42,370 nt of DNA from an uncultured Anaerolineales bacterium (GTDB taxonomy: Bacteria > Chloroflexota > Anaerolineae > Anaerolineales > Villigracilaceae). The notes under the pieces are model-generated. The model worked only from the letters and a program-made list of their open reading frames with translations. It was not told the origin of the DNA and did not search any database. This document shows positions 9,809 through 39,851 of this stretch, piece by piece. Each line of letters begins with the position of its first letter. Position 1 is the first letter of the stretch. The stretch covers positions 1 through 42,370 of the forward strand of contig CALGPL010000023.1 in assembly GCA_937960595.1 (NCBI GenBank), read 5' to 3'. A program made the translations under genes and the position numbers.

Positions 9809-10477
9809 TCACTGATTTCGCCAGCGCATGAGGAAGTCGGCGATGGCGAAGTCGAGTTCTTCGTCAATGTCCCAGGCTTCGGCGGGGTCGATTTCGAACA
9901 GGAGCGGGCGCTCGCCGATGCGATGACGCCGCCGGACGAGGTTCTGGCGGGTGAAGAGATAAATGCAGGAGTTCTCTTCGTACACCGGCGGCAAATCCTG
10001 GGTCTGGAGCAATTCGTTGGGATCGTGGTTGAGGGCGCGTCCCTGGGCATCGTAGAGGCGGGTTTGGAGGCGCGTCACCGAGAAGAGCGAATCGCGCTCT
10101 GGATAAGCCCTCAGAAAAGTCTGGATGGCGCGCGAGAGGGTCTCGGCCCGCAAGAGCGGGTTGGTGCTGTGGGTCTGGAGATAGAAATCGGCCTCCCGTT
10201 GGGCGGTGTCGTAGAGCAAGATATCGTTCATCGGAACATCATCGGCGCGCAGATGGTCTGGGCGGACGAGGACTTGCACCTGGGGAAAATCGGCGCGCAG
10301 ACCGGCAATGACCGGCTCGGAATCGGTATCTACCAGGATGGTCGAGATTTCGGGCACCTCGAGCAGAGACCGCAGGATGTGATGGTAGAGCGGTTTGCCG
10401 GCCAGCAGGCGATAGTTCTTGCCCGGGACGCGCTGGCTGTGGTGACGCATGGGGACGAGAGCAACAATCGTGGTCAT
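9809..10477 (-). CDS. acylneuraminate cytidylyltransferase family protein (divergent NeuA-like)
   Basis: 222 residues. The N-terminal nucleotide-binding loop is LVPMRHHSQRVPGKNYR (7-23), a variant of the usual IPARGGSKGIPRKN of CMP-sialic acid synthetases. Further family features are TDSE near residue 51, QTHSTNP (substrate loop) and YEENSCIYLF near the C-terminal third, ending with DIDEELDF. The family couples CTP to a nonulosonic acid, releasing pyrophosphate. It is the most divergent of the three cytidylyltransferases here, so its sugar may differ. Downstream 2-hydroxyacid dehydrogenase and SDR genes suggest a dedicated three-gene path. Confidence 0.82.
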   Translation of the reverse strand: MTTIVALVPMRHHSQRVPGKNYRLLAGKPLYHHILRSLLEVPEISTILVDTDSEPVIAGLRADFPQVQVLVRPDHLRADDVPMNDILLYDTAQREADFYLQTHSTNPLLRAETLSRAIQTFLRAYPERDSLFSVTRLQTRLYDAQGRALNHDPNELLQTQDLPPVYEENSCIYLFTRQNLVRRRHRIGERPLLFEIDPAEAWDIDEELDFAIADFLMRWRNQ

Positions 10478-10480
10478 AGG

Positions 10481-11437
10481 CTATTCATTATACCGAATCG
10501 GTTCGATCTCGCGTTTCACCGGGGCGGTCTTTTCCCAACCGACGTGATAATAAAAGGTCTGGCGCAGTTCGGGGGTCAGGGGGCTGGCGCGGCGGTATCC
10601 CTGGTAAGTGCCCCAAAATTGACTCCAACGAAACCAGAAAATACTCCCCAGGCTGGGCCACAGAAGCCGGGCGCGGGCGGCATGGAGCAAGTCGAAGAAG
10701 ATGCTGGCCATCAGATTGCGCAGGAAGTCGTAGAAATTGAAGTGCGCTTCGGGGAAGATGCGCTTGAAGGCCATCGCCTCGCGGCGGTAACGGTTGCGGA
10801 CCGCGGCCGGGGTCTCATGATGGACATGGATCACCTCCGCCTCGGCGACGTAGGCGAGGGTGTAGCCCTGCGCCTGCGCCCACTTGGCCCATTCGAGGTC
10901 TTCCAAGCCGGTCAGGGTCTCATCGTAGGGGCGGGCCTGCCAGAGCGAGCGACGGACGGCAGCATTGGCATTGTTGCAGAAGGGATGAGCCTGCCGCGCC
11001 GCCGACTGGTCGGGATACCAGCGGGCGAAAATTTGCTGTTCGGAGAAATGCGCCGTTGCCGGGCCGCGCTGCTTGCCGTAGGTCAGGGCCACCTGGGGGT
11101 CGGCGAACGGTTCGAGCAGACGCTCCAGCCAGTCGGGATAGACGGGATAGACGTGGGCGCTGGCGATGGCAACCAGGTCGCGGCTGGCGGCGGCCAGGCC
11201 GAGGTTGAGCGAGCGGCCGAAAGTGAACTCCTCGGGCTGAATGCGGACCAGGCGCGCCCCGTAGCGGGCCGCGATGGAGGCGGTGGCGTCGGTCGAGCCG
11301 GAGTCGACCAGGATGACCTCCACCTCGCGGACCGTCTGGTGGCGGACGCCCTCCAGCAGACGGCCAATGTGGGCCTCCTCGTTGTAGGCGCGGACGACGA
11401 GCGAGCAGGCCGGCGGCTTCTGCTTCTTCTTAGTCAT
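10481..11437 (-). CDS. family 2 glycosyltransferase lacking a canonical DxD
   Basis: 318 residues from ATG 11437, overlapping the stop of the upstream gene by 8 bp. The GT-A start CSLVVRAYNEE (11-21) and VDSGSTDAT (44-52) are clear. FTFGRSLNLG (71-80) resembles rhamnosyltransferase-like GT2 proteins. Where DxD normally sits the sequence is ASAHVYP (92-98), so metal binding is either absent or uses other residues. LEDLEWAKWA (178-187) is the catalytic-base region. The C-terminal 100 residues include two amphipathic or hydrophobic stretches that may contact the membrane. Donor unknown. Confidence 0.86.
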   Translation of the reverse strand: MTKKKQKPPACSLVVRAYNEEAHIGRLLEGVRHQTVREVEVILVDSGSTDATASIAARYGARLVRIQPEEFTFGRSLNLGLAAASRDLVAIASAHVYPVYPDWLERLLEPFADPQVALTYGKQRGPATAHFSEQQIFARWYPDQSAARQAHPFCNNANAAVRRSLWQARPYDETLTGLEDLEWAKWAQAQGYTLAYVAEAEVIHVHHETPAAVRNRYRREAMAFKRIFPEAHFNFYDFLRNLMASIFFDLLHAARARLLWPSLGSIFWFRWSQFWGTYQGYRRASPLTPELRQTFYYHVGWEKTAPVKREIEPIRYNE

Positions 11438-12809
11438 CGGCCGCCTCCAGCAAACCGCCGGCCAGCAATTTTTCGGCCGCCCGGTGCAACTGGCGCAGCG
11501 GGAGGGCGGTCTTTTCGGCGACCTCGAGCAGCGAGGTCTGCCCGTCGGCATAGAAGAGGACCCAGCGCAGGGCGTCCAGTTCGCTGCCGTAGAGGATGTT
11601 GCCCTCGTCCACCGCGTAGCGGCGCTCGCCGTGGGCAGCGGGCGAGGCGGCCTGCTGCCTGATGGCGCCGCCGGTCTTCGGGTACAAGCCGCGCTTGCCG
11701 AGCATCGGTTCGCCGATCGGGTTGCGAGAACGGTAGCGGCGATCGTATTCGAGTTTTTCGATGGCCAGCAGGTACAGTTTCAGGGTCTCGATCAGGTTTT
11801 GGGCGCTGATGAAGTCCAGGTCGTCGAGCGAGGTATGATAATAGGGATACTCGTAGTATTTGTCCTTGCAAATCGTGCCGATCGGGATGCGCAGACCCGG
11901 CTGAGAGTACTGGCGCTCGTCCGAGCCGTTGACATCGAAGGGATACTCGAGGTAGTCCAGGCCGAGTTCGCGGAAGGTCAGGCGGACGGCGCGGTCGATG
12001 GGGTCGTTGCCGCGAAAGGTCTGTTTGTAGCCGAACTGGCCGGGACCCGCCACGGTGGTCGCCACAAAGCCGCCCGTCAGGGCTCGGACGGCGGCCTCGT
12101 TGCGGGCGATGTAGGCCAGGGCGCCGATCGTCTCGGGGGCGATGACGAAGCGGTAGGCGTGGCGCAGGGGACGGCGGCGCAATTCGGCCAGCAGGAGAGT
12201 CCACAAGACCGGGCCGGAGAGGTTATCGTTGGCCAATGAGGGGTGACAGACGTAGGTGGAGACCAGATATTCGCGGCCCGAACGACCGGGCAAGAGCGCC
12301 TCGCCGTAGGTCAGCGCGCCGGGGGCCAGGGTGGTATCCACCACCACGCGGTAAGTTGCCCGACGGTCGAGGCGTTGGAATTGTTCGTGGGTCAGGCAAA
12401 AGCCCCAGGTGCGGTTGTAATACGTGGTCCGGTAGGGGATGGCGGTGGGCAGATCGGGCAGGGTGTGCAGGTGAGGAGCGAGTTCGTCGAAGGTCAGCGT
12501 CCCCTCAAAAGGACAGGAATAATTGACCAGGTGGATGTTGCTGGCGCGGAAGTCGATCAGCCGCCGGCCCGACGAATCGGCCACGTAGGCGTCGCGGACG
12601 TTCCACTCGTCGGGGATGGTCCAGTCGTAGCAGACGGTGCCGGAGGGGACTTCGACGAGGTCGAAGGGGGTCACTTCGGCCAGGGCGCGCAGAGTCTGGC
12701 GCAGCCCATGGCCGGTGATCGAGCGGCAGAGGGGGAAGAGGCGGCGCAACAGTTCATCGGCGCGGGCCGTCAGGGCGGCCCAATCGGGCTGGAAGAGGGG
12801 CTCGGTCAT
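11430..12809 (-). CDS. DUF4910-type metallo-aminopeptidase-like protein with C-terminal winged-helix-like domain
   Basis: 459 residues from ATG 12809 with AAGGTG upstream. Residues about 10-375 match the M28-like DUF4910/DUF2172 family. Candidate metal ligands are H189 (YVCHPS), D195 (ANDNLSGP), E226 (APETIGA), D297 (GSDERQ) and H325 (YYHTSLDD). A C-terminal segment (about 395-459, YAVDEGNILYGSELDALRW onward) has the helical pattern of the winged-helix domain often fused to this family. Members recur in polysaccharide and secondary-metabolite clusters, and a deacylase or peptidase role on a sugar amide is possible. No signal peptide, so cytoplasmic. It is first in the leftward operon and divergent from the methyltransferase gene. 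Confidence 0.8.
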   Translation of the reverse strand: MTEPLFQPDWAALTARADELLRRLFPLCRSITGHGLRQTLRALAEVTPFDLVEVPSGTVCYDWTIPDEWNVRDAYVADSSGRRLIDFRASNIHLVNYSCPFEGTLTFDELAPHLHTLPDLPTAIPYRTTYYNRTWGFCLTHEQFQRLDRRATYRVVVDTTLAPGALTYGEALLPGRSGREYLVSTYVCHPSLANDNLSGPVLWTLLLAELRRRPLRHAYRFVIAPETIGALAYIARNEAAVRALTGGFVATTVAGPGQFGYKQTFRGNDPIDRAVRLTFRELGLDYLEYPFDVNGSDERQYSQPGLRIPIGTICKDKYYEYPYYHTSLDDLDFISAQNLIETLKLYLLAIEKLEYDRRYRSRNPIGEPMLGKRGLYPKTGGAIRQQAASPAAHGERRYAVDEGNILYGSELDALRWVLFYADGQTSLLEVAEKTALPLRQLHRAAEKLLAGGLLEAADD

Positions 12810-12818
12810 CGGGTCACC

Positions 12819-12855
12819 TTGGAGGGCGGGCAGGCCTCGTGATATACTTGCCCGC
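12819..12855 (+). promoter_or_regulatory. candidate rightward promoter with overlapping inverted repeat (possible operator)
   Basis: TTGGAG (12819-12824), an 18-bp spacer and TATACT (12843-12848) resemble a sigma-70 promoter for the methyltransferase gene. A perfect 7-bp inverted repeat, GCGGGCA (12826-12832) and TGCCCGC (12849-12855), flanks the -10 box and is well placed for a repressor. GGAG at 12871-12874 is the Shine-Dalgarno before ATG 12881. The same 71-bp gap holds the leader of the leftward operon. Confidence 0.4.
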
Positions 12856-12880
12856 AAGCAAAATCTGAGAGGAGTTTCTC

Positions 12881-13655: not shown

Positions 13656-14453
13656 TCAATCGGCTGCCGCTTGGGGCGGTTGATCGCCCGGACGGTTCGT
13701 GACCAGCGCCCAGGGGTCGGCCCGCAGCAATTCCTCTTCGACGGCGGCGAAATCGCGCAGGCGGCAGGAGGCCACCCGCCCATAATTGAGCGGCACCTGC
13801 CTCCACAGGCCGCGGCGCTCGAGTTCGTGCTGCACGGGCGCGGCGTTCACATCCGGATCGAGGTCGAGGTCGCGGACGAACATGCGGTAGGTGCGCACCT
13901 CGGGCGGGCGTCCGACCAGGCGCACCTCGCCGGTGAACTCTTTCCAGTAACGATACGGCACCTGGAGGCGCTGTTCGGGCAGGTGAACCATCGAGGTGAA
14001 GCGGATGTCGGCGCCCAGCAGGAGCAGTTTGAAATCCAGTTCGAGCATGCGCTCGAAGGCCGAGCCGGGGTCGAAGGCCGAGGAGGTGTCGCGCCCGCAC
14101 AGGTCGGCGGCGTGACGCCCGACCGCGGCAACCGACTGCATCGGGTGCGGCGAGCGAAGAACGCCCGGCTGGCGGCGGACGTATTCGGGAAAGACGCCCA
14201 TCTCCTCGGCCGGCGTCTCGGCCTGATCGAACGGCTCGCCGCGAGCAAAGCCGAAATTGAAGGTCGGGACGACCAGGGTGCCGAGGGTTTCATCGAGGCC
14301 GAGGACCGTCCGCAGGGCATCGTAATAGATGCCGATTCCGCCCTCCGGCAGGCCGAGGAATTGCAGCGCAGCGTGGACCATGACGCCGTCGCCGGGCTGC
14401 AATCCGACCGCCCGCAGGGCAACGATGATTTGGTCGCGAGTCACTGTGAGCAT
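13656..14453 (-). CDS. AAC(3) family N-acyltransferase (antibiotic_NAT fold)
   Basis: 265 residues, usual family size. Motifs are GVMVHAALQFLG (23-34, H27), PTFNFGF (63-69), MGVFPE (85-90), RSPHPMQSVAAVG (100-112) and the catalytic-type MVHLPEQR (155-162, H157 and E160). The family transfers an acyl group from a thioester donor to an amino group of aminoglycosides or other aminosugars. Within a glycan cluster, next to a carrier protein and its loading ligase, a role in acylating or aminoacylating a sugar amine is more likely than drug resistance. It is 20 bp downstream of the ligase gene on the same strand. Confidence 0.85.
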   Translation of the reverse strand: MLTVTRDQIIVALRAVGLQPGDGVMVHAALQFLGLPEGGIGIYYDALRTVLGLDETLGTLVVPTFNFGFARGEPFDQAETPAEEMGVFPEYVRRQPGVLRSPHPMQSVAAVGRHAADLCGRDTSSAFDPGSAFERMLELDFKLLLLGADIRFTSMVHLPEQRLQVPYRYWKEFTGEVRLVGRPPEVRTYRMFVRDLDLDPDVNAAPVQHELERRGLWRQVPLNYGRVASCRLRDFAAVEEELLRADPWALVTNRPGDQPPQAAAD

Positions 14454-14473
14454 AGGCGCCTCATCGGCCAGGG

Positions 14474-15661
14474 TTATGCAACCGCCCGGCGCACGATCTC
14501 CGGCCAGTCAGCCGTCTCCAAGCCATACTGGGCCAAGAACGCGTAAGCCATGCGTTCCAGGCCAAAAGCAATGCAGCCGGTGTGGACGGGGGAGCCGTCG
14601 GGCAGGGTGATGTTCAAGGCCCGGCCGAAGAAATCCTGATGGTAATTATACGAGCCAACCGCCAGGGTGCTGTCTTTGAAGGGCAGGCGGGCGCGAATCT
14701 CGAACTTCAACTGGAAGGCGCTCTGGAAAGCGGCCTGTTTCTTGAACTCGCCGATGAAGAACGGGTCGTTGGCGCTCTCGACGTGATAGGCCAGGCCAAT
14801 CTGTTCGAAGAAGGCGCGCATGCGCTGGCGGCCGGTCTCGCGGTTTTGCAGGACGAAGTCCTTCGGCCCGACGAAGATGACCTCCCGCATGGTGAAGTTC
14901 CACATCCGTTCGAGCGAGGTCAGGTTGAGCGACTCGTAGCGGAAGCAGTTGCCCACCGCCGTCGCCGCCAGGCTGCCGCCGGGCAGCGGCCGGTCGGCCA
15001 GCGAAAAGTACAGGTGGTAGCAGACCGCCGGCGAGAGCAGAGTCTGAATCGGGGCGAACGACTCGGACGGGGCATCCAGGCCGTGCTCGCCGCAGGCCGC
15101 GTGTTGGGCAAAATCGTCAATCACATCCAGGTCTTCGCGCAGATGGGTGACGAAGGTCAGCGAGTGCGGGAAGGCGCGGAAGTAGTGGACGCGTTCCAGA
15201 AAACGCGCCGGGATGAGGGTCGGGAAGCGATAGGGGGCCGCGCCGAAGGAATCGGCCAGGGCCAGGAATTGTCGCTCGAAAAAATCGATCAGGCGGGTCA
15301 CCAGCGGGCCGACGGTCAAGATGCCGGCGGCCTCCTGGAACATCTCGCGGCGCGCCAGGAGTTCGGCGTTGGGATCGCCGCGGTAAGGAACGGGGCGGTC
15401 GGAGTAATCTTCGAGCACCTGGACCTTGGGCTTGAAGGCGCCCTGCACCATGGCCTGCACGACGCGCTGGACCTTCTCTTCGAGCGCTTGGCGGGCCGGA
15501 CCCTCGACCGGCCGGCGCAGACGGAGGCCGATCGTCTCGCCGTCGGCGGTCAGGCGGGCGGCCAGGATGTTCTCGTCCACATAAGCCAATTTGGACTGCA
15601 CCTCGCCGATCAGGAACGGCGGGATCGCCCAGGCAGGTTTGATTTCGATCTCATGGTTCAT
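14474..15661 (-). CDS. amino acid:[carrier protein] ligase, class II aaRS-like
   Basis: 395 residues. Class II aaRS motif 2 is NCFRYE (238-243) with E260 further on, and motif 3 is GCIAFGLERM (362-371). C214, E260 and C363 match in spacing (46 and 103) the Cys-Glu-Cys zinc site that I recall for atypical SerRS and for Bradyrhizobium-type amino acid:[CP] ligases (45 and 103). There is no tRNA-binding coiled coil or anticodon domain. These enzymes activate Gly or Ala with ATP and load it on the phosphopantetheine of a small carrier protein. The carrier gene is directly upstream with an ATGA overlap (15658-15661), a strong functional link. About 80 extra N-terminal residues precede the catalytic core compared with the Bradyrhizobium form as I remember it. 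Confidence 0.87.
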   Translation of the reverse strand: MNHEIEIKPAWAIPPFLIGEVQSKLAYVDENILAARLTADGETIGLRLRRPVEGPARQALEEKVQRVVQAMVQGAFKPKVQVLEDYSDRPVPYRGDPNAELLARREMFQEAAGILTVGPLVTRLIDFFERQFLALADSFGAAPYRFPTLIPARFLERVHYFRAFPHSLTFVTHLREDLDVIDDFAQHAACGEHGLDAPSESFAPIQTLLSPAVCYHLYFSLADRPLPGGSLAATAVGNCFRYESLNLTSLERMWNFTMREVIFVGPKDFVLQNRETGRQRMRAFFEQIGLAYHVESANDPFFIGEFKKQAAFQSAFQLKFEIRARLPFKDSTLAVGSYNYHQDFFGRALNITLPDGSPVHTGCIAFGLERMAYAFLAQYGLETADWPEIVRRAVA

Positions 15662-15906
15662 GATTGACCTTCCCTCTTACCCAAGTATTCGCAGATGGCA
15701 GACACGCTGGTCAGGGCGGCGATCAGGTCGGCGTCAATGGGGACGCCAAAACGCTCCTCGAGCAGGAGCATGACACCCATGTGACCCATCGAATCCCACT
15801 GCTGGATTCCCCCGAAGGCCAGGTCGGGCGAAATCTGCTCTTTGGGCAGGCTGAACGCCTCGGCCAACAGGGCGCGTACACTTTCCAATAATTCGACGTT
15901 CTCCAT
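15658..15906 (-). CDS. acyl/aminoacyl carrier protein
   Basis: 82 residues, the size of a free-standing carrier protein. The phosphopantetheine attachment site is S39 in WDSMGHM, a DSxGH variant of the common DSL motif. Four helices can be traced, with an acidic helix II-III region (LLLEERFGV). It overlaps the ligase start by ATGA, so the two proteins are translationally coupled, and it is expected to be the ligase's aminoacylation target. It needs a phosphopantetheinyl transferase encoded elsewhere. AAAGGA lies about 10 bases before the ATG. Confidence 0.9.
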   Translation of the reverse strand: MENVELLESVRALLAEAFSLPKEQISPDLAFGGIQQWDSMGHMGVMLLLEERFGVPIDADLIAALTSVSAICEYLGKREGQS

Positions 15907-15912
15907 CCAAAA

Positions 15913-17400
15913 TCAATCCTTTCCGGGCGATAAAATAGCCTCCGCGGCAGCCTGGCGGCGGGCCAGGAAACTGGCCGAGACGACCAGCCCAAACGCCGTC
16001 CAGGCATAGGGCAGGGCGAACGAATCCACGCTGAAGCCCTCGCCCAGCAGGGCAACCACGGCGAGCATGCCCATCCAGCCGAGGGCGCGTAAGAGCGGCT
16101 CGTTGCGGCGCTGCAAAGTCTGCGCCGAGGCGAAGACAATGTACAGCCAGGAGACGAACAGGGCAAAGCCGACCACGCCGGTCTCGGCCAGCAGACGCAG
16201 CCAGAGATTCTTGGGGTTGACCAGAAAGGTGTTTTCCAGATAAATTTTCTGGAACTCGCTGAGCGCCCAGCCGAACTGCGGCAGATGACTCTCGAAGTAA
16301 AAGCCGGTATTGCCCAGCCCGACCCCCAGCCAGGGGAAAGCGGTGAAGACGTTCCAGCCCAGGCCCCAGTAGGCAAAGCGCTCGGCGAGCGCCAATTGGT
16401 TGGCGAGGTAGAAGAAATTTCCGCCGCCGTAGGTCAAGGTGAAGATGGCCGCGACGCGCGTATCCAGCCGCGAAAGGAGATAGATGCCCAACGCCGCCGC
16501 GGCCGCGAAGGAGGCCGGCATCGCGGCCCGGATGAGCGCCCGGCGCCGGCCGCCGCCCAGCCGCCCGGCCAGGACGCCGCTCACCCGCCAGACCAGGAAG
16601 GCCAGGACAAGCAAGAGGGTCAGATAACCGATGCGCGAAAGGCTGGCATACGAAAGCAGGATCCCGGCCACCAGGAGCACATTCTCGGCCGAAAAACGCC
16701 ACAAGCGGAAGCGCCAGGCCGAGTATCCGGCCAGCGAAGCGCCCAGCCAGTAGGGCAGGTAGAGCATATTCAACTGATGCGCCAGCCAGGACGGTTCGAA
16801 GGCAAAGCCGGCCACCCGTTTCATGCGCAGGAATTCCGGCAGCGAACCCAGCGAGAGCATACGATGAACCGCCAGGACCGCCGGCGGAAAGAATTCGCTG
16901 CCATGCAGGTAGATGTAATACAACTGGAACAAACACCAGGCCACGATGAGAACGCCGCCCACATTCACCAACGCCAGCAGAGGCCGATATTCGGCCGGGC
17001 TGCGCAGGGCCACTGCGAAGAAGAGAAAACAGGCGCCCCCGACCAGGAGAGTCAGCAGAGCCGAGAGGACTTCGCGCGGTAGGCTGACGCTTTTGTAGAG
17101 CGGCAGGTCGGCGGAGAAGAAAGCAAGGAGCGAAGAGAACAGCGCCGCGCCCGCGAAAGCCGCCAGCGGGACGAGTTCGCCCGGCCAGCGTTCGCCGCCC
17201 AGCAAGACCGTCGGCAGGTAGAGCGCCAGCCCCAGGGCGACGAAGACCAGCGAAGGCGGCGCGACCATCGTCCCGCCCATCAGGCGCGCCAGCAGAGGCA
17301 GGCTGGTCAGCGGCAGGAGCAAGACGGCTGCCAGGGCGCAGAATCGCACCAGCGGGCGCGTCCGCCGAGCATACGCCTGGAGGGCAGAGCGCAGTCTCAT
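15913..17400 (-). CDS. O-antigen ligase/Wzy polymerase-like membrane protein
   Basis: 495 residues, very hydrophobic with about 12 predicted helices and one long outer loop (about 300-400). The segment YWGLGWNVFTAFPWLGVGLGN and the following NLWLRLLAETGVVGF are typical of the Wzy_C/O-antigen ligase family (PF04932), where a loop before the last helices carries the acceptor-binding residues. It could polymerise undecaprenyl-linked repeat units or ligate the glycan to a final acceptor on the outer face. It overlaps the Wzz-like gene by ATGA, which favours the polymerase role. 6 bp separate it from the carrier protein gene. Confidence 0.82.
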   Translation of the reverse strand: MRLRSALQAYARRTRPLVRFCALAAVLLLPLTSLPLLARLMGGTMVAPPSLVFVALGLALYLPTVLLGGERWPGELVPLAAFAGAALFSSLLAFFSADLPLYKSVSLPREVLSALLTLLVGGACFLFFAVALRSPAEYRPLLALVNVGGVLIVAWCLFQLYYIYLHGSEFFPPAVLAVHRMLSLGSLPEFLRMKRVAGFAFEPSWLAHQLNMLYLPYWLGASLAGYSAWRFRLWRFSAENVLLVAGILLSYASLSRIGYLTLLLVLAFLVWRVSGVLAGRLGGGRRRALIRAAMPASFAAAAALGIYLLSRLDTRVAAIFTLTYGGGNFFYLANQLALAERFAYWGLGWNVFTAFPWLGVGLGNTGFYFESHLPQFGWALSEFQKIYLENTFLVNPKNLWLRLLAETGVVGFALFVSWLYIVFASAQTLQRRNEPLLRALGWMGMLAVVALLGEGFSVDSFALPYAWTAFGLVVSASFLARRQAAAEAILSPGKD

Positions 17401-23540: not shown

Positions 23541-24298
23541 CAGAACAGGGAATCGTAGGGGACTTTGGGGAAGACGGTCAATTTGCCCTCAATGGTGGCG
23601 TCCAGCACCTGCCGGCCGGCGCGTTCGTAGGCCTGACGGGCCAGACGGTAGGCAATTTCGGAGGTCGCCAGATCAGGGAGTTCCCACCGAAAGCCTTTGC
23701 CGAAGTAGTGAGGCGAGAAATGGTTGGGATCGTCGCCCTGGGAGGTGACCGCTTGCCCGGCCGGCCCCTGGGTGACGAAATTATGATCCACCCCGATCAG
23801 GATGACCTGTTCGAAGCCGAGGTGAAAGGCGATTTGCAGCGCCACGTAGGTGACGGTCGCCCCTGGCCAGAGCGGGCGGCGGATGTCGGCGGTGAAGCCG
23901 CGCCCCGGGCAGGAGGCGTTGAAGAAGACCGTATCGGGGGTCAGGCGCGGCAGGTCGCGGCGCGAACCCCAGGGCAGGAATTTGGGCATGGGCAGGTCGA
24001 GGATCTCGGCCGCGCACTGGCGGATGACGAGATGATTGACCGAGACGAAATAAGTGGTGTGAAAGCCCAGTTCGGGGAAGAGCAGATAGACGCGGTTCAT
24101 CCCGAAGGTGTATTCGCCGCGCAGTTTGCTCAGGTCGGTGCGGCGCAGGCTGGGGCCGTTGCCGAGGATGAAGCAACGTTTGCCGCGCTGACTATCCTTC
24201 CATTCGGCCAGCAGGCGGCGGCTTTGGCGTCCCCAGGGATGAACGGTCATGTCCAGGCGGTGCTTGAGGCAGCGCGCCAGTTCGAGGGGCAGGTTCAT
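23540..24298 (-). CDS. DUF115/MptE-like protein, second copy, resembles GT42 sialyltransferases
   Basis: 252 residues from ATG 24298 in an ATGA overlap with the upstream capsule-type gene. FILGNGPSLR (43-52), YVALQIAFHLGFEQVILIGVD and PNH(193)FSPHYFGKG match the protein at 7242-8057; by eye about 70-75% of positions agree over the C-terminal two thirds. N-termini differ. The DNA of the two genes has diverged and this copy is richer in GC, so they are not a recent duplication. Function inferred as for the first copy, possibly transfer of a CMP-activated nonulosonic acid. Both copies sit next to polymer-building glycosyltransferases. Confidence 0.75.
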   Translation of the reverse strand: MNLPLELARCLKHRLDMTVHPWGRQSRRLLAEWKDSQRGKRCFILGNGPSLRRTDLSKLRGEYTFGMNRVYLLFPELGFHTTYFVSVNHLVIRQCAAEILDLPMPKFLPWGSRRDLPRLTPDTVFFNASCPGRGFTADIRRPLWPGATVTYVALQIAFHLGFEQVILIGVDHNFVTQGPAGQAVTSQGDDPNHFSPHYFGKGFRWELPDLATSEIAYRLARQAYERAGRQVLDATIEGKLTVFPKVPYDSLF

Positions 24299-25890
24299 GC
24301 ACTCTCCTTCAGCAGGAAATCGCCCTCGTGCAGGAGGCCGTCCACGATCGTCCGCAGGGTGGGGTGATCGAGATTCAGGCGGGCGAGGGCGCCGGGCTTG
24401 AGGTAGACATAGCCGCGCAAGCCGGAGGGGATCAGGAAATCGTCGCAGGGCAGGGAGGTCCGGAACAACTGATAGTAGAGGAACCGGCGGGCATGGCGGC
24501 GGTGTTCGGCCGGCGGCGTGAGGCGCTCGGCCTGCAAGAAGTCCTCCAGCATCCGGCGGTAGTCCTCCACGCTGGCCGGAAAGAAGACGGTCGGATATTG
24601 GGTGAAGCGCGCCTTGCCGGCGCACAGCACCGCCGCGCCGAGGATCGAGGCCTCCAGGCCGATGGTGGAATTGTAGATCATGACGAACTTGGAACGCTGA
24701 ATCAGTTCGTAGGAACTCACATACTGGTCGGAGGGGATGAAGACCACATTCGGGAGGGCCGCCGCCCGACGCGCCGCGGCCCAATCGGCTACGCTCTCGC
24801 GGCTGGCTTTGCCCGGACGGGTCTCGTCGGGGTGGGCGCGCAGGACGAAGAGCGTCTCTGGATGGGCGCGGATGACCTCTAATACGAGGTCGAGCCAGGC
24901 GAACATGTCGGGGAAGAGGACGTTCGAATGCGGCTGGCTGGTGTCGAAGATGACGTTGGTGAAGACCGGCACGATCTGGCGAAAGGCGGCGGCCTTTTGC
25001 AGGAAGGCGGCGTCTAGGCCGCGCATTTCCGGCCAGAACTGGATGCCGGCCATGGTGAAGCGGCCCTCGAAGCGTTCTTCGAGATAGGCATCCAGGCGGG
25101 CGTCTTGGGCCGGGCTGAGGTCGAACGAGTCGGGGATGGCGATCGGGTAGGCGGTCGCTTCGCCGAGGGTGAAATAGGCGCTGAGCGGGCGCAGTCCGAC
25201 CTCGTGCGTCACCGTGCGAATGCCGCGCCGGCGGGCGAGGAAAGCCGCCACCGCTTCGGGAAAGAACTGGCCGTTGAAGACCACCACCGCCTGAGGGTCG
25301 GTCTCGTCGAGCAGGCGTTCGAACTGGCAAGCCACGTTCCAGGCCGAGAGCAGGAACTGGCGGAAGAGAAAGCGGGTCGCTTCGTCCTCCGACAAATGGT
25401 GGCGGCGCAAGCGCCAGCGGACGGAGGGCAGCACCAGCGCGCCCAGCGGCAAGCCCTCGTGCGAAACCTGAGCCAGTTCGTCCACCGAGAGCGGTTCGAG
25501 GCGGGCGGCCAGGGCGGGGTCCGGCCGGTAGCCGAAGAAGCGCGTCGGCGCGCCGACGGCCTGGACGTCACTCTGGCGGATGCACAGGCGGCAGGGCGGC
25601 GGCGTCTCGGGGCGGTCGGGGTCGGCGCCCAGCACGCAGCGGGTCATGCCGGCGCGGCAGACGAAGTGGACAACCGGCGTGCCGGTCAGCCGCACCGCCC
25701 AGGAGGCCAGCAACGAAAAGGCGGCGTTCAGGCTGAGTTCGTCGAGGCGGGTGGAGGCGTGGAAGAAAATCACCGGCCGCGCTCCGCGCCGGGGGCGGGC
25801 GCGCAGGGCCAGCGCCGCCGAGAAGAGCGCCAGGCGTCCCTTGCCGCGCCAGAAGTTTCCTAGCCGCCGCCCAAAAGACGAAATACTCAT
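24295..25890 (-). CDS. capsule polysaccharide biosynthesis-type glycosyltransferase with a four-Cys motif
   Basis: 531 residues. The C-terminal half has FVLRAHPDETRP, a VFIPSDQYVSSYELIQ segment and YNSTIGLEASILGAAV, the signature of KpsC/KpsS-like and related capsule GT-B enzymes. The N-terminal half contains C78, C85, C100 and C103 (C-x6-C-x14-C-x2-C), a possible zinc or Fe-S site. No signal peptide or membrane helix. It is coupled to the DUF115/GT42-like gene by ATGA and adjoins the SAF-less NeuB gene with no gap. Donor unknown; a nonulosonate or Kdo-like sugar is possible given the neighbours. Confidence 0.75.
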   Translation of the reverse strand: MSISSFGRRLGNFWRGKGRLALFSAALALRARPRRGARPVIFFHASTRLDELSLNAAFSLLASWAVRLTGTPVVHFVCRAGMTRCVLGADPDRPETPPPCRLCIRQSDVQAVGAPTRFFGYRPDPALAARLEPLSVDELAQVSHEGLPLGALVLPSVRWRLRRHHLSEDEATRFLFRQFLLSAWNVACQFERLLDETDPQAVVVFNGQFFPEAVAAFLARRRGIRTVTHEVGLRPLSAYFTLGEATAYPIAIPDSFDLSPAQDARLDAYLEERFEGRFTMAGIQFWPEMRGLDAAFLQKAAAFRQIVPVFTNVIFDTSQPHSNVLFPDMFAWLDLVLEVIRAHPETLFVLRAHPDETRPGKASRESVADWAAARRAAALPNVVFIPSDQYVSSYELIQRSKFVMIYNSTIGLEASILGAAVLCAGKARFTQYPTVFFPASVEDYRRMLEDFLQAERLTPPAEHRRHARRFLYYQLFRTSLPCDDFLIPSGLRGYVYLKPGALARLNLDHPTLRTIVDGLLHEGDFLLKESA

Positions 25891-26834: not shown

Positions 26835-28064
26835 TCATCTTTCGGATTGGACAGCCAGGATCATCTCGCACACTTCGCGCAGTGCGCCCCGACCGCCGGC
26901 AGCGCGCAGGATATAGTCGGCGGCGCGGCGCACTTCGGGATAGGCGTCGGCGACGGCCACCGCCCAGCCGGCCACTTCGAAGCAGGGGAGATCGTTGACA
27001 TCGTTGCCGAGGTAGATCACCTGGGCCGGGTCCAGGCCGCGTTCCTGCAGGATGGCGCGCAGGGCCTCGCCCTTGCCGTGAATGCCGACGCCGTGAACGG
27101 CCTCGACGCCCATCTTACGGGCGCGGGCAGCCACGACCGGATTCGGCTCGGAGGAAAGAATCAGCACCCGGACGCCGCGCCGTTCCAGTTCGCGCAGATA
27201 CATCGAATCGGAACGGTTGGCGGCCACCAGTTCGCGGCCGGTTTCGTCGGTCCAAACGAGGTTGTCGGTCAGGACGCCGTCGAAGTCGCAGACGAGCAGG
27301 CGGATCTGCTCGGGCATCGGGCGACGCCGGGCGGGGGTCACGATATCCAGCCCGCTCCAGGCGAGGGACTCGTAGCGCGCCCAGTCCTGCAGGTTGTCAA
27401 TGTCCACCGTGTAGCGCGGGTCGATGAGCAGGGGGTAAATGACCTCGCCGGTCAGGGAATGTTTCTGGCGGATGGAGGCGGCGCGGATGGCGTCGATGTG
27501 GCCGGTCTGCCAGTAGGTGGGCGGCAGGGACTGGCGCGGGGCGTTGTAGGGTTCGGCCACGCCCTCCAGGCTGAGCAGGGGGCGCATCGGGCGGTCGGGG
27601 CCTTCGAGACGCCACATTTTGAAGGGATTTTGGGCCGACGGCACCACGCCGCGCACGCAGTCGGCGTCGGGGTGAGCCAGCAGCAAGCGCACGGCCTCGT
27701 CCACCAACCCGCGCGGCCGGATCGGGGAGGTGGGGCGCAATTGGACCACCACCTGCGGATGGTGATCCTCGTGCTCGGCCAGCCAGTCGAGGGCGTGTTC
27801 GAAGACCGGCAGGTCGGTGGTGTCGTCGCGGGCCAGTTCGGCGGGGCGCAGGAAGGGGGTCTCGGCGCCGAAGGCGCGGGCCACGGCGGCGATCTCTTCG
27901 TCGTCGGTGCTGACCAAGACGCGCGTCACCGTCTGCGCCTGGCGGGCGGCGGCGATGCTCCAGGCGATTAGAGGATAGCCGGCAAAGTCGCGGATGTTCT
28001 TGCGCGGGATGCCCTTCGAGCCGCCGCGCGCCGGAATGAGAGCCAGAACAGAAGGAGGGTTCAT
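26835..28064 (-). CDS. CMP-nonulosonate synthetase fused to KdsC-like HAD phosphatase
   Basis: 409 residues from ATG 28064. Residues 1-240 are a NeuA-type cytidylyltransferase: IPARGGSKGIPRKN (10-23), STDDEEI, QLRPTSP (108-114) and the QTGHID loop (186-191). Residues 254-405 are a HAD C0-type phosphatase with CDFDGVLTDN (nucleophile D260, acid D262), LSSE (S304/S305), K331 and GNDVNDLP (353-360), all catalytic residues present. The layout mirrors animal CMAS. It could dephosphorylate a nonulosonate-9-phosphate and then activate it with CTP. It is followed by the synthase gene after a 53-bp AT-rich gap. The gap between it and the GT39-like gene is 4 bp. Confidence 0.88.
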   Translation of the reverse strand: MNPPSVLALIPARGGSKGIPRKNIRDFAGYPLIAWSIAAARQAQTVTRVLVSTDDEEIAAVARAFGAETPFLRPAELARDDTTDLPVFEHALDWLAEHEDHHPQVVVQLRPTSPIRPRGLVDEAVRLLLAHPDADCVRGVVPSAQNPFKMWRLEGPDRPMRPLLSLEGVAEPYNAPRQSLPPTYWQTGHIDAIRAASIRQKHSLTGEVIYPLLIDPRYTVDIDNLQDWARYESLAWSGLDIVTPARRRPMPEQIRLLVCDFDGVLTDNLVWTDETGRELVAANRSDSMYLRELERRGVRVLILSSEPNPVVAARARKMGVEAVHGVGIHGKGEALRAILQERGLDPAQVIYLGNDVNDLPCFEVAGWAVAVADAYPEVRRAADYILRAAGGRGALREVCEMILAVQSER

Positions 28065-28068
28065 ACGA

Positions 28069-30108
28069 TCACCGCCGAGGATAACGATAGAGAATGTAGT
28101 CGCCAAAGTGGTCGAGCGGTTCGAGCCGGCGGGCGAACATCTGTTGATAGGGGTCGGTTTCGGTCAGGACGACCGGATGGCCGAAGACGTAGTCCAGGCC
28201 GAGGCGGTCGAGGAACTGGTCGCCGCGCCCGGCGCGCAAACTGTGGAAATACGCCGGGCTGTTGATGAGGCCGTCCAGGTTGACGATCACCCGCTCTTCG
28301 ATGAAATAGCCCATCGCGCCGCTGCCGGTCAGGCCGATGAGCGCGCCCGTTTCGGTGTGGGTCTCGAGGTAGCGGACGAAAGTGAAGTATTCATGCTCAC
28401 CGGTCGGACGGACGGGGAAACGGCGGGCGGTCAGGGCCGTAAATGAGACCAGCGTACCGATGCACAGCACGGCCAGGAGGCCGTTCCAGGCCATCCGCCG
28501 CGCCGCGCCGTCTCGCGCCAGCAGCCGGTGCAGGCTTTCGAGCAGCAAAGCCGCCAGCGTGACCGTGAAGAGCATCTCGGCGACCCAGTACCAGGTGCGG
28601 ATGTGAACGTAACTGGTGGCAGTGTAACTGAAGATATGGGCGTACAGGCCGAGGCCCCAGGCAAACAACCCCATCTCACCCGCCGCCTGGCCGAACCATG
28701 GACGATTCGGGCGGAGGAGAGCCACTGCCAGCCCGACCAGCACCAGCAGGCCGGGCAGGAAAGTCAGTCCGTCCGGCAAGAAGGACGAGGCCAGCGACCG
28801 AAGCCACTCGAGCGGCGAGAGGGCCAGCGACCAGGCGCCGCGCTCGCCAAAGCCCAGCAGGTGCGCCAGGTTGCGCTGCGGCGCGCCGTAGAGGGTAAAC
28901 GGCAGTTCGCCCCACCAGCGTTTGACCTGCCCGCTGACCGGCGTCCACAGGCCGACGGCCGCATGACTCCACAGCAGATAACCGCCCAGCAAGACGACCA
29001 GCGGCGCCAGACAAGCCGCCGCCCGCCCAAACGCGGGCCGCCAGAACGACCAGGCGAAACGCGCCTCCGACCGGCGGCCGGTCTCCTCCTGAGGCGGGGC
29101 GGCCAGCAGACGAATCAGCAGGCTGCCGCCGAAGACCAGCGCCGCGGCGATGGGAATCACCGAGCGGGGCAGAGCCTCGAAGACGCCCAGGCGCTGCAAA
29201 GCGAGCAGGAGGCCGCCGATGACGAGCGTCGCCGCCAGGACGGCCGCCGCCAAACAGCGAATTTGTTTCCACCGCCCGCCAACCGGGGCAGGGTTGTACA
29301 GGCCGAGCGCCAAAAAGGCCAGCGGATAGAACAGGAAGCCCAGCCCCACCAGCCAGGGGAGCGAGACGCTGTTCTGGAGATAAACCGCCCCGGCTTCCAG
29401 GCGGAGGTAATAGGCAAGCAGCCCGCCCAGGAAGACAACGCCCAGGTCGCCGATCAGCGCCGTCCGCAAGAAACGGCCATACGGCGCCAGGACCGCCCAG
29501 GCGCACAGGATCAGGACGAGGAAGAGGTTGTCCAGGCGGGCCAGGACAGCCAGGCCGCCCACCAGGCCGACCAGCGCCAGGCGGCGCGGGGGGAACGCCC
29601 GCGCCCGCGGATCGGTCGCCAAAGAGATCAGCCAGACGAGAGTCAGGGCGTTGACGGCGCTTTCCAACCCTTGCTGGGCAACGAGGCCGTGAATGGCCGG
29701 GGCAAAGACCCAGACGACCGCCGCCAGCCCGGCCGTCCAGTCCGACACCGCCCGCCGCAGAAGGCGCGCCAGCAGGACGCCCGTCCCGCCATGCAGCAGG
29801 GAGGCCACCACCACCAGGACGCGCAGCGGCAGGATCAAGTCGAAACGGGCCAGGGTGAACACCGGCAGGCAAATCAGCATCCAGAGCGGGTGGAAGCCGT
29901 TGGTCGGGTTGAGGCCGTCGAAGGTCACGCCCTGGCCGGTGACGATATTCTGAGCGACTTTGAAGTAGTAGAAAGCATCGTCGCTGGAATACCAGTTGAG
30001 CAAACTGTCGGCGGGCAGAAAGGCCACGTAGAGGCCGGCGACCAGGCTGAGGGTCAGCAGGCCGATTTCGAACCGGCGGGAAGCGGGCGGTGTCCAATCT
30101 ATCTTCAT
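28069..30108 (-). CDS. large polytopic membrane protein, GT39-like (GT-C fold)
   Basis: 679 residues with about 12-14 membrane helices and a soluble C-terminal part (from about 575). The first outer loop has NWYSSDDAFYYFKVAQNI with an acidic pair typical of GT-C catalytic loops, followed by GLNPTNGFHPLW. The C-terminal domain contains GLTGSGAMGYF and NLDGLINS. This architecture is common in polyprenyl-phosphate-dependent glycosyltransferases acting outside the membrane, but the family is poorly characterised. It is wedged between the SDR and the NeuA-HAD fusion, so it may decorate a nonulosonate-bearing glycan. Donor and acceptor unknown. Confidence 0.72.
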   Translation of the reverse strand: MKIDWTPPASRRFEIGLLTLSLVAGLYVAFLPADSLLNWYSSDDAFYYFKVAQNIVTGQGVTFDGLNPTNGFHPLWMLICLPVFTLARFDLILPLRVLVVVASLLHGGTGVLLARLLRRAVSDWTAGLAAVVWVFAPAIHGLVAQQGLESAVNALTLVWLISLATDPRARAFPPRRLALVGLVGGLAVLARLDNLFLVLILCAWAVLAPYGRFLRTALIGDLGVVFLGGLLAYYLRLEAGAVYLQNSVSLPWLVGLGFLFYPLAFLALGLYNPAPVGGRWKQIRCLAAAVLAATLVIGGLLLALQRLGVFEALPRSVIPIAAALVFGGSLLIRLLAAPPQEETGRRSEARFAWSFWRPAFGRAAACLAPLVVLLGGYLLWSHAAVGLWTPVSGQVKRWWGELPFTLYGAPQRNLAHLLGFGERGAWSLALSPLEWLRSLASSFLPDGLTFLPGLLVLVGLAVALLRPNRPWFGQAAGEMGLFAWGLGLYAHIFSYTATSYVHIRTWYWVAEMLFTVTLAALLLESLHRLLARDGAARRMAWNGLLAVLCIGTLVSFTALTARRFPVRPTGEHEYFTFVRYLETHTETGALIGLTGSGAMGYFIEERVIVNLDGLINSPAYFHSLRAGRGDQFLDRLGLDYVFGHPVVLTETDPYQQMFARRLEPLDHFGDYILYRYPRR

Positions 30109-36990: not shown

Positions 36991-37007
36991 GGCCGGGGCC
37001 GCCGGCC
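36991..37007. other. GC-rich hairpin at the 2-hydroxyacid dehydrogenase stop
   Basis: ggccgg (36991-36996), a 5-base loop and ccggcc (37002-37007) make a perfect 6-bp stem in the 41-bp gap upstream of the epimerase-like gene. It lacks a T tract, so it could be a pause or mRNA-processing site rather than a full terminator. Confidence 0.4.
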
Positions 37008-37972
37008 TAAGAGGGGGTTGACGATCCTTCGAGATAGGCGCGCAATTTGTGCGCCATGAAGACTTCGGTGGCCGCCATCGACTCGCGGGTCGCGCCGCCG
37101 ATGTGCGGGGTGAGAATCAGGTTGTCGTGGAGGCGCGCGTAGCGGACGAGCGGCGATTCTACCAGACTGCCGCGGCGTTCGTCGCGCAGCACATCCAGGG
37201 CCGCGCCGCCCAGATGACCGCGTTCCAATGCCGCCAGCAGAGCAGACTCGTCCAGCACCTGGCCGCGCGCGGTGTTGACCAGCAACGCCCCGGGCGGCAG
37301 GAGCGCCAGTTCCGGCGCGCCGATCAGGTTCTCGGTCTCGGCGTTGAGCGGGACGTGGATCGAGAACACCTGACTGCGGCGCAGCAAGTCGGCCTGGCCG
37401 GAGAGCCGTTCGACTCCGTCGAGCCAGCCGGGGCGATAGGGGTCGTAGGCCAGCACCGTCATGCCGAAAGCCAGGCCGTAGCGGGCCACTTTCTCGCCGA
37501 TGCGCCCCAGGCCCAGCAGGCCGAGGGTCTTGCCGGCCAGATCGGCGCCGCGGAAACGGTCGCGCTGCCATTCGCCGGCCAGGACGGAGGCGTGGGCCGC
37601 CGGAATGCGCCGCACCAGGGCCAGCAAGAGCGCCCAGGTGTGCTCGGCAGTGGCCGGGATGCGGCGCAGGAAGTCCGTCTCGCCGCGCAGGCTGAGGACG
37701 GCGATGCCCTTGGCGGCGGCATATTTCAGGTCAATGTGATCCAGGCCGGTGGTGGCGCTGACGATGACCTTCAGCCGCTCGGCGCGCTCCAGCACCTGCC
37801 GGTCAATCGAATGCGCCAGGCGGACGATGAGGACGTCGAACTCGCCGACGCGCTCGAGCAGGCCGGCGCGGTCGAGCGGTCCCGTCTCCACCGCGCCCAG
37901 GGATTGGAGGACGGTCAGGGCTTCGGCAGAGTAGTTCTCCGGTTCGAGGTTCAGGATGCGGTAGCGGCTCAT
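37007..37972 (-). CDS. D-isomer-specific 2-hydroxyacid dehydrogenase
   Basis: 321 residues. The NAD motif is GLGRIG (154-159) and the catalytic set is R236 (NTARG), E265 in VLRDERRG and H290 (TPHIGG). No regulatory domain. Its ATG at 37972 directly abuts the TAA stop of the CMP-sugar synthetase gene, suggesting coupling. It differs markedly in sequence from the dehydrogenase at 8839-9798, yet both sit immediately 3' of a cytidylyltransferase. It reduces or oxidises an alpha-keto/hydroxy acid; substrate unknown. Confidence 0.87.
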   Translation of the reverse strand: MSRYRILNLEPENYSAEALTVLQSLGAVETGPLDRAGLLERVGEFDVLIVRLAHSIDRQVLERAERLKVIVSATTGLDHIDLKYAAAKGIAVLSLRGETDFLRRIPATAEHTWALLLALVRRIPAAHASVLAGEWQRDRFRGADLAGKTLGLLGLGRIGEKVARYGLAFGMTVLAYDPYRPGWLDGVERLSGQADLLRRSQVFSIHVPLNAETENLIGAPELALLPPGALLVNTARGQVLDESALLAALERGHLGGAALDVLRDERRGSLVESPLVRYARLHDNLILTPHIGGATRESMAATEVFMAHKLRAYLEGSSTPS

Positions 37973-38683
37973 TTAACGGCTTTGCTCCCGCAGCAAAAGG
38001 TCGGCCAGTTTGAGGTCCAGTTCGCTGTCGATGCTGAGCGAGCGTTCCTCCGGCATGAGGTAGGGGCGGATGACCTCGCCCCAGATCGAGCCGCGCTCCA
38101 TCAGCACGTCGCGGCGGGTCAGGTAAATCGCGCCGTTGCGCATATAGGCCGGGGGCTGGTAATCCTGGCGGCGGGTGCCTTCTTTCTCTTCGATGCAAAA
38201 AGGCAGCAGGCGGTCGTTCTCGATGCGTTTCATCAGGATGGGATGCACGGCGAAGACCTGCACCACGCTGATGACCGAATCGCAGCCGCCGCGTTCGGCC
38301 AGGTCGAGGGCGGCGCGGATGTCCTCGGGGGCGCGCAGGGGGGCGGTCGGCTGGAGCAGCAGCACCCAGTCCAGGCGGACGCCGTCCTGCACCTCGATCG
38401 CGCCCACGGCGTGCTGGAGGACGGGGGCCATCGGGACGCGGTCACCGCTCAACTCGGCCGGACGCAGAAACGGCACCTCGGCCCCCAAGCGGCGCGCCAC
38501 TTCGGCGATCTGTTCGTCGTCGGTCGAGACGATCAGGCGGTACAGGCGCTCGCGCATGGCCAGGGCCGCCTCGATGGTGTAGGCGATGAGCGGCTTGCCC
38601 GCCACCGGGCGGATGTTCTTGTGCGGCACGCCCTTCGAGCCGCCGCGCGCCGGGATGATGGCCAGAGTACGCAGGTGGGTCAT
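37973..38683 (-). CDS. neuA: CMP-nonulosonic acid synthetase (NeuA-type cytidylyltransferase)
   Basis: 236 residues, single domain. IPARGGSKGVPHKN (10-23), VSTDDEQIAEVA, LLLQPTAPLR, and the MRNGAIYLTRRD loop mark an acylneuraminate cytidylyltransferase. It activates a nonulosonic acid with CTP. AGGAG precedes the ATG. It is directly downstream (8 bp) of the neuC-like gene and upstream of a 2-hydroxyacid dehydrogenase. With neuC- and neuB-like genes it forms the standard free-sugar pathway, probably for CMP-Neu5Ac or a relative. Confidence 0.9.
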   Translation of the reverse strand: MTHLRTLAIIPARGGSKGVPHKNIRPVAGKPLIAYTIEAALAMRERLYRLIVSTDDEQIAEVARRLGAEVPFLRPAELSGDRVPMAPVLQHAVGAIEVQDGVRLDWVLLLQPTAPLRAPEDIRAALDLAERGGCDSVISVVQVFAVHPILMKRIENDRLLPFCIEEKEGTRRQDYQPPAYMRNGAIYLTRRDVLMERGSIWGEVIRPYLMPEERSLSIDSELDLKLADLLLREQSR

Positions 38684-38691
38684 GATTGCTC

Positions 38692-39849: not shown

Positions 39850-39851
39850 GG

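What the first reader, a model, noticed from the sequence alone, without database searches (positions are those of the whole stretch)
13656..15906. Carrier-protein amino acid loading module inside a surface-glycan cluster
The ligase (14474-15661) keeps class II aaRS motifs 2 and 3 and a Cys-Glu-Cys zinc triad (C214, E260, C363) but has no tRNA-binding parts, and is coupled by ATGA overlap to an 82-residue carrier protein with the DSxGH site (S39). An AAC(3)-family N-acyltransferase lies directly downstream. From known amino acid:[carrier protein] ligases, the carrier would hold a Gly or Ala thioester. The inference is that the AAC(3)-type enzyme passes it to an aminosugar, giving aminoacylated glycan. 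To my knowledge the physiological acceptor of such carriers is unknown in most bacteria, and a link to Wzy-type polymer assembly would be new.
Basis: partly seen in the sequence, partly recalled or inferred. Interest (0 to 1): 0.82.

Follow-up and report, generated by a model that had tools for sequence, protein, structure and literature searches.

The report
Carrier-protein aminoacylation cassette in sialic-acid-like cluster
Uncultured Chloroflexota bacteria carry a conserved gene set that appears to load a small amino acid onto a carrier protein and pass it to an amino group of a sialic-acid-like surface sugar, which would give a testable purpose to a family of tRNA-synthetase relatives whose cellular role is still unknown.

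Summary
The three genes are real and at the stated coordinates: an 82-aa carrier protein (CP), an ATGA-coupled 395-aa class II synthetase-like ligase, and an AAC(3)-family N-acyltransferase. The ligase models well (pLDDT 90.8) and superposes equally on Bradyrhizobium glycine:[CP] ligase and archaeal SerRS. C214/E260/C363 and motifs 2 and 3 are invariant in 49 homologues. It is a distinct, N-terminally extended subfamily, below NCBIfam's cut-off. In relatives, CP lies directly upstream in 40 of 41 loci, and AAC(3) within 3 kb downstream in 34 of 34. Among 101 related genomes the AAC(3) orthologue occurs only where the ligase does (12 genomes; 13 have the ligase). The general setting is a nonulosonic (sialic-acid-like) cluster with a DUF4910 amidohydrolase-like protein, which in some ligase-less relatives is fused to AAC(3). 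The Wzy link is confined to close relatives. Best model: CP holds a small amino acid; DUF4910 removes an N-acyl group from the nonulosonate; AAC(3) re-acylates with the aminoacyl group. This extends a published hypothesis for Campylobacter Cj1295. The gene association is shown; the chemistry is inferred, and nothing here fixes the amino acid or acceptor. New variant of a known kind.

The parts
15658..15906 (-). Carrier protein, 82 aa, phosphopantetheine site S39 (WDSMGHM)
   Evidence: PF00550 E 1.8e-7; W37, D38, S39, H42, M43 conserved above 95% in 42 homologues; starts 6 nt after the Wzy_C gene
14474..15661 (-). Amino acid:[carrier protein] ligase-like class II synthetase, 395 aa; Zn triad C214/E260/C363; motif 2 R241/E243; motif 3 G367-R370; N-terminal extension 1 to about 94
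   Evidence: Bll0957 E 1.5e-39; NF005479 172 bits, cut-off 357; model pLDDT 90.8; Z 32 to 4h2s/4h2w/3mf1 and to type-2 SerRS; residues invariant in 49 rows
13656..14453 (-). AAC(3)-family N-acyltransferase, 265 aa; conserved HP (103-104), S154-x-x-H157-x-x-E160
   Evidence: PF02522 E 5.6e-37; FrbF and AAC(3) structures; ligase-associated clade, SH-aLRT 99
11430..12857 (-). DUF4910/DUF2172/HTH_47 protein, M28-like amidohydrolase fold; proposed N-deacylase of the nonulosonate. The listed ORF uses the first possible (TTG) start
   Evidence: PF16254 E 4.4e-80; 3k9t 'putative peptidase' E 4.3e-106; H205, D211, E242, D313, H341 conserved above 95% in 45 rows; fused to AAC(3) in L111 and L115
12881..13606 (+). 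SAM-dependent methyltransferase on the opposite strand between AAC(3) and DUF4910; kept only in near relatives
   Evidence: PF08241 E 8e-21; present in L032, L033 and L035
25891..26871 (-). NeuB-family nonulosonate synthase (associated sugar pathway)
   Evidence: PF03102 E 6.2e-80; next to CP-ligase in most relatives (27 of 30)
26835..28106 (-). CMP-sugar cytidylyltransferase fused to KdsC-like phosphatase
   Evidence: PF02348 and HAD; PseF 147 bits, KdsC 122 bits, both below cut-off
24295..25890 (-). Capsule_synth/BFO_1060-like glycosyltransferase, adjacent to CP in most relatives
   Evidence: PF05159 E 1.1e-5; 28 of 30 loci
9809..10477 (-). CMP-sugar cytidylyltransferase (PseF-like)
   Evidence: PF02348 E 1.6e-29; PseF 61 bits, below cut-off
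15913..17400 (-). Wzy_C O-antigen ligase/polymerase directly upstream of CP; lineage-specific neighbour
   Evidence: PF04932 E 2.4e-9; near relatives and one second copy in G027 only

Best explanation
A cytoplasmic amino-acid transfer cassette for a nonulosonic (sialic-acid-like) sugar. (1) The zinc-dependent class II ligase makes an aminoacyl-AMP and moves the amino acid to the phosphopantetheine thiol of the partner CP; strongly supported by homology, not assayed. (2) The DUF4910 M28-like hydrolase removes an N-acyl group from the nonulosonate or its CMP form, exposing an amine; inferred. (3) The AAC(3)-family enzyme takes the aminoacyl group from the CP and N-acylates that amine; inferred. 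In most relatives a GNAT, absent here, could cap the amino group. The aminoacylated sugar is then built into the surface polymer. The amino acid is probably small (Gly, Ala or Ser, by analogy with the family) but undetermined.
For: Ligase: Bll0957 E 1.5e-39; model pLDDT 90.8, pTM 0.87; Z 32.4 to the Bradyrhizobium ligase-CP complex 4h2w and 32.8 to M. barkeri SerRS; Zn and ATP-site residues invariant in 49 homologues. CP directly upstream in 40 of 41 loci, AAC(3) within 3 kb downstream in 34 of 34, DUF4910 in 29 of 29, NeuB in 27 of 30. Genome co-occurrence: AAC(3) orthologue (over 200 bits) in 12 of 101 relatives, all ligase-positive; the 13th ligase genome is cut at a contig end (Fisher 1e-14, uncorrected for shared ancestry). 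Ligase-associated AAC(3)s form one clade on a long branch (2.04 changes per site, SH-aLRT 99). Relatives without CP and ligase keep AAC(3)+DUF4910+NeuB, and AAC(3)-DUF4910 is a single protein in L111 and L115, which points to sequential steps on one substrate. DUF4910 metal-type residues conserved. Outside Chloroflexota, AAC(3)-CP-ligase-formyltransferase is contiguous in a proteobacterial contig, L077, and a planctomycete glycan cluster, L079, has CP-ligase plus two AAC(3)s. Literature: C. [quoted passage not shown] that this equals DUF4910 is my recollection) is needed for an alternative N5-acyl group on pseudaminic acid, and its authors proposed that it removes the 5-acetamido group (PMC3068675). 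E. coli O161 has legionaminic acid with D-alanyl on N7 (PMC10609480).
Against: No biochemistry. AAC(3) enzymes classically use acetyl-CoA and its donor here is untested. The AAC(3)/DUF4910 pair exists without CP and ligase, so it does not need an aminoacyl donor as such. Only 2 of 35 distant ligase loci show an AAC(3) nearby; others sit with GNAT/hexapeptide transferases, acyl-CoA dehydrogenases, KAS III or condensation domains, so the family has several uses. The loci are nearly all one order, so counts are not independent. In C. jejuni Cj1296/7 (annotated N-acetyltransferase) was off in both variants. The role of GNAT is unknown.
Confidence: 0.55

Rival explanations
1. The ligase loads the CP, but the acyltransfer to sugar is done by another enzyme (a GNAT in most relatives), while the AAC(3) enzyme N-acetylates either the sugar or the CP-bound aminoacyl group with acetyl-CoA.
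For: A GNAT gene lies between ligase and AAC(3) in 32 of 34 loci. In Sorangium L086 a GNAT-domain protein follows the ligase without AAC(3) detected; in L094 the GNAT match is weak. AAC(3)+DUF4910 persists without CP and ligase, consistent with an acetyl-CoA enzyme.
Against: The window and its near relatives (L032, L035 and, G043 and G046) have no GNAT between ligase and AAC(3), so AAC(3) is the only conserved N-acyltransferase there. The AAC(3) clade diverged sharply where the ligase occurs.
Confidence: 0.22
2. The CP-bound amino acid is chemically modified on the carrier and used for a small molecule or a non-sugar part of the envelope, the sugar genes being mere neighbours.
For: Related ligases in Streptomyces sit with CP, acyl-CoA dehydrogenase, P450, condensation and AMP-ligase genes, and in Rhizobium with ACP, acyl-CoA dehydrogenase and DUF1839.
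Against: None of those partners was found among the flanking families tested in the Chloroflexota loci; the conserved neighbours over 15 kb are sugar, sulfate and glycosyltransferase genes.
Confidence: 0.12
3. The ligase keeps some tRNA-related or other amino-acid-activating function and the CP is not its substrate.
For: It matches type-2 SerRS as closely as Bll0957 in fold (Z 32.8 against 32.4) and keeps an N-terminal extension of about 94 residues that Bll0957 lacks.
Against: ATGA coupling to CP and CP upstream in 40 of 41 loci; sequence match better to the CP ligase (E 1.5e-39 against 3e-22); about 98 N-terminal residues of M. barkeri SerRS have no counterpart; patchy distribution (13 of 101 genomes).
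Confidence: 0.06

Closest known systems
Bradyrhizobium Bll0957-type amino acid:[carrier protein] ligases (Mocibob 2010, 2013, as cited in PMC9437257)
   Same: Class II core, zinc triad, motifs 2 and 3, paired CP gene; Z 32, about 30% identity over residues 95-395
   Different: N-terminal extension of about 94 residues; NCBIfam score 172 against cut-off 357; nonulosonate/AAC(3) setting, whereas the Rhizobium locus inspected has acyl-CoA dehydrogenase and DUF1839
Campylobacter jejuni Cj1295-Cj1296/7 pseudaminic acid N-acyl exchange (PMC3068675)
   Same: Aminopeptidase-like polysaccharide protein beside an annotated N-acetyltransferase in a nonulosonate locus; proposed deacylation then re-acylation
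   Different: Acyl group there is di-O-methylglyceroyl; no synthetase-type ligase is described in that paper
Porphyromonas/Tannerella Vim pathway (as described in PMC11969387)
   Same: Sugar N-deacetylated, then N-acylated by Ser or Gly
   Different: Hexosamine-uronic sugar; enzymes not compared here; aminoacyl donor not stated there
Dlt D-alanylation of teichoic acids (general knowledge)
   Same: Adenylating enzyme loads an amino acid on a dedicated CP for a surface polymer
   Different: DltA is an A-domain, not a class II synthetase; transfer is outside the membrane to hydroxyls
Clostridioides difficile type B flagellin taurine-Ala-Gly cap (PMC5207245)
   Same: Amino acids amide-linked to an aminosugar, putative acyltransferase in the locus
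   Different: Putative D-alanine ligase rather than a CP ligase; Fuc3N acceptor

Membership tests
Amino acid:[carrier protein] ligase (Bll0957 type) | Class II synthetase core with motifs 2 and 3 | tested here: met
   R241/E243 and GLER 367-370 invariant in 49 rows; Z 32.4 over 292 residues
Amino acid:[carrier protein] ligase (Bll0957 type) | Cys-Glu-Cys zinc ligands | tested here: met
   C214, E260, C363 invariant in 49 rows; metal not modelled
Amino acid:[carrier protein] ligase (Bll0957 type) | NF005479 equivalog score above cut-off | tested here: not met
   172 bits against 357; hence filed as a related subfamily that probably works like it
Amino acid:[carrier protein] ligase (Bll0957 type) | Lacks an N-terminal tRNA-binding domain | tested here: inconclusive
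   First 98 residues of M. barkeri SerRS missing, but about 94 residues precede the Bll0957-like core; one alignment spans 1-395 at 10 A rmsd; profile of that part finds nothing in PDB
Amino acid:[carrier protein] ligase (Bll0957 type) | Cognate CP encoded next to it | tested here: met
   ATGA overlap; 40 of 41 loci
Amino acid:[carrier protein] ligase (Bll0957 type) | Loads holo-CP and does not charge tRNA | not testable with these tools
   Needs assay
AAC(3) N-acyltransferase (PF02522) | Family score above Pfam cut-off | tested here: met
   128 bits against 25
AAC(3) N-acyltransferase (PF02522) | Thr/Ser-x-x-His-x-x-Glu active-site motif | tested here: met
   S154, H157, E160; H and E conserved above 95%; Ser here against Thr in ligase-less relatives
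AAC(3) N-acyltransferase (PF02522) | Acetyl-CoA donor and aminoglycoside acceptor | not testable with these tools
   AAC equivalog cut-offs not reached (93 bits against 270)
DUF4910/aminopeptidase-like polysaccharide protein | DUF4910 and DUF2172 domains with M28-type metal residues | tested here: met
   E 4.4e-80 and 1.4e-34; H205, D211, E242, D313, H341 conserved; that these bind metal is inferred from the M28 pattern

The most novel reading that the evidence does not exclude
A physiological acceptor for synthetase-type amino acid:[CP] ligases: an amino group of a nonulosonic acid, reached through an AAC(3)-family enzyme that uses aminoacyl-CP instead of acetyl-CoA, after deacylation by a DUF4910 hydrolase.
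Probability: 0.4. Interest if true: 0.8.

Novelty: new variant of a known kind. Interest (0 to 1): 0.62.

Why it matters
[quoted passage not shown] Here the ligase, its CP, one acyltransferase clade and a probable deacylase travel together through an order of Chloroflexota inside a nonulosonate cluster, which names both a transferase and an acceptor to test. It would also show AAC(3), known mainly as an antibiotic-resistance fold, working with a carrier-bound amino acid.

Tried and rejected
First ligase model with 12 close sequences was poor (pLDDT 68.6) and was replaced by the 49-sequence model. N-terminal extension searched alone against PDB sequences: no relative. CP profile against PDB gives general ACPs and no family assignment. 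Looked for group-specific AAC(3) residues that would show loss of the CoA site: 14 columns differ between ligase-associated and ligase-less clades, including T154S, but none could be tied to CoA binding. PPTase search in the window's own genome found none; it is 87% complete and 10 of 10 relatives have one, so the absence is not used. Wzy dependence was rejected as a general feature. Paper searches found nothing linking these ligases to AAC(3) or glycans, within an open-access library only. DUF4910 as a protein-cleaving peptidase was set aside because its Campylobacter counterpart changes the glycan, not the polypeptide.

Full report
Observation. The window is one contig of an 87%-complete MAG (G000:C23). 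On the minus strand, Wzy_C (17400-15913), CP (15906-15658), ligase (15661-14474) and AAC(3) (14453-13656) follow with gaps of 6 nt, an ATGA overlap and 20 nt. Pfam, NCBIfam and PDB searches confirm each identity. The ligase is nearest to Bll0957 (E 1.5e-39) and then to type-2 SerRS, but scores 172 bits against NF005479's cut-off of 357.

Ligase anatomy. The first AlphaFold2 model, from 12 close sequences, was poor; with 49 diverse sequences it reached pLDDT 90.8 and pTM 0.87. Residues 71-395 match M. barkeri SerRS (Z 32.8, 2.1 A) and 95-395 match the Bradyrhizobium glycine:[CP] ligase, including the ligase-CP complexes (Z 32.4, 2.3 A). These are tied. C214, E260, C363, R241, E243 and G367-R370 never vary among the 49. 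The first 94 residues have no partner in Bll0957; their profile finds nothing in PDB, and the one SerRS alignment that includes them has 10 A rmsd, so a remnant of the SerRS N-domain is possible but not shown.

Neighbourhood. In 101 relatives 13 genomes have the ligase. A named genome scan gave 79 loci: 44 Chloroflexota loci at 56-91% identity and 35 distant ones. In the 44, with truncated contigs left out: CP directly upstream 40 of 41, AAC(3) within 3 kb downstream 34 of 34, GNAT 32 of 34, DUF4910 29 of 29, NeuB 27 of 30, cytidylyltransferase-phosphatase 26 of 30, Capsule_synth-like glycosyltransferase 28 of 30. Most loci also carry ATP sulfurylase/APS kinase and sulfotransferases. Wzy next to CP is limited to the window's near relatives and a second, contig-end copy in G027. 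The loci come from one order, so these are counts, not independent events.

Co-occurrence and divergence of AAC(3). The AAC(3) orthologue (over 200 bits, 55-93% identity) is found in 12 of 101 genomes, all with the ligase; the 13th ligase genome ends at the contig edge. Other genomes have AAC(3)s at 139 bits or less. The eight of these that I examined lie beside DUF4910 and, in six of eight, NeuB, with no CP or ligase found by the same profiles; in two (L111, L115) AAC(3) and DUF4910 are one protein. In a quick tree the 39 ligase-associated AAC(3)s form one clade on a long branch (SH-aLRT 99). The natural fusion says that AAC(3) and DUF4910 act together; the clade says that AAC(3) changed where the ligase is present.

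Other lineages. A proteobacterial contig has AAC(3)-CP-ligase-formyltransferase in a row (L077), and a planctomycete glycan cluster has CP-ligase with two AAC(3)s, an epimerase and glycosyltransferases (L079). The other distant loci examined show different partners: GNAT and hexapeptide transferases (L086, L094), acyl-CoA dehydrogenase, CP-thioesterase and P450 (L101), KAS III (L076), acyl-CoA dehydrogenase with condensation and AMP-ligase genes or with DUF1839 (L123, L124). So the ligase family has several uses and the AAC(3) link marks one of them.

Mechanism. Shown: gene content, order, conservation, fold. Inferred: the ligase charges the CP (about 0.85); AAC(3) hands the aminoacyl group to a sugar amine (about 0.6); DUF4910 first removes an N-acyl group (about 0.4). 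The last step follows the hypothesis of Hitchen et al. for Cj1295, which is required for an alternative N5-acyl pseudaminic acid (PMC3068675); its equivalence to DUF4910 rests on the shared aminopeptidase-like description and my recollection of the Pfam assignment. DUF4910 here is 359 bits to 3k9t and keeps H205, D211, E242, D313 and H341. Aminoacylated nonulosonates exist: E. coli O161 has legionaminic acid with N7 D-alanyl (PMC10609480), and an N-acetylglutamine derivative of pseudaminic acid is known in C. jejuni.

Limits. The type of nonulosonate cannot be read from the sequence: NeuB and PseF-like scores stay below their cut-offs, while NeuC in the second cluster passes. The amino acid is unassigned. 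The literature library holds open-access papers only. Verdict: observation confirmed; interpretation partly supported and re-centred on nonulosonate N-acylation; new variant of a known kind.

Noticed in passing
L111:6389-8518 (+), L115:7177-4709 (-): Single proteins that join AAC(3) (PF02522) to DUF4910/DUF2172 in relatives without CP and ligase.
   Followed up: partly
window 37007-40907: Second nonulosonate set: 2-hydroxyacid dehydrogenase, cytidylyltransferase, NeuC (361.9 bits, cut-off 235.9) and NeuB with SAF domain.
   Followed up: partly
window 28069-30108 (-): 679-aa protein with no Pfam or NCBIfam match, with a homologue in the related cluster of G046 (L021).
   Followed up: no
L025, L038-L041, L050, L056-L060 and others: ATP sulfurylase/APS kinase and sulfotransferase genes flank the cassette in most relatives, suggesting a sulfated glycan; none seen in the window among the genes scanned.
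   Followed up: partly
L112:4834-6267 (+), L117:7011-5773 (-): Proteins of 477 and 412 aa without any Pfam match in AAC(3)-DUF4910 clusters.
   Followed up: no
G027: L022 and L023: Two ligase copies in one genome, one at a contig end beside a Wzy-like and a DUF4910-family gene.
   Followed up: no
L101, L105 (Streptomyces cellostaticus), L123: Related ligases in natural-product-like clusters with acyl-CoA dehydrogenase, P450, CP-thioesterase or condensation genes.
   Followed up: partly
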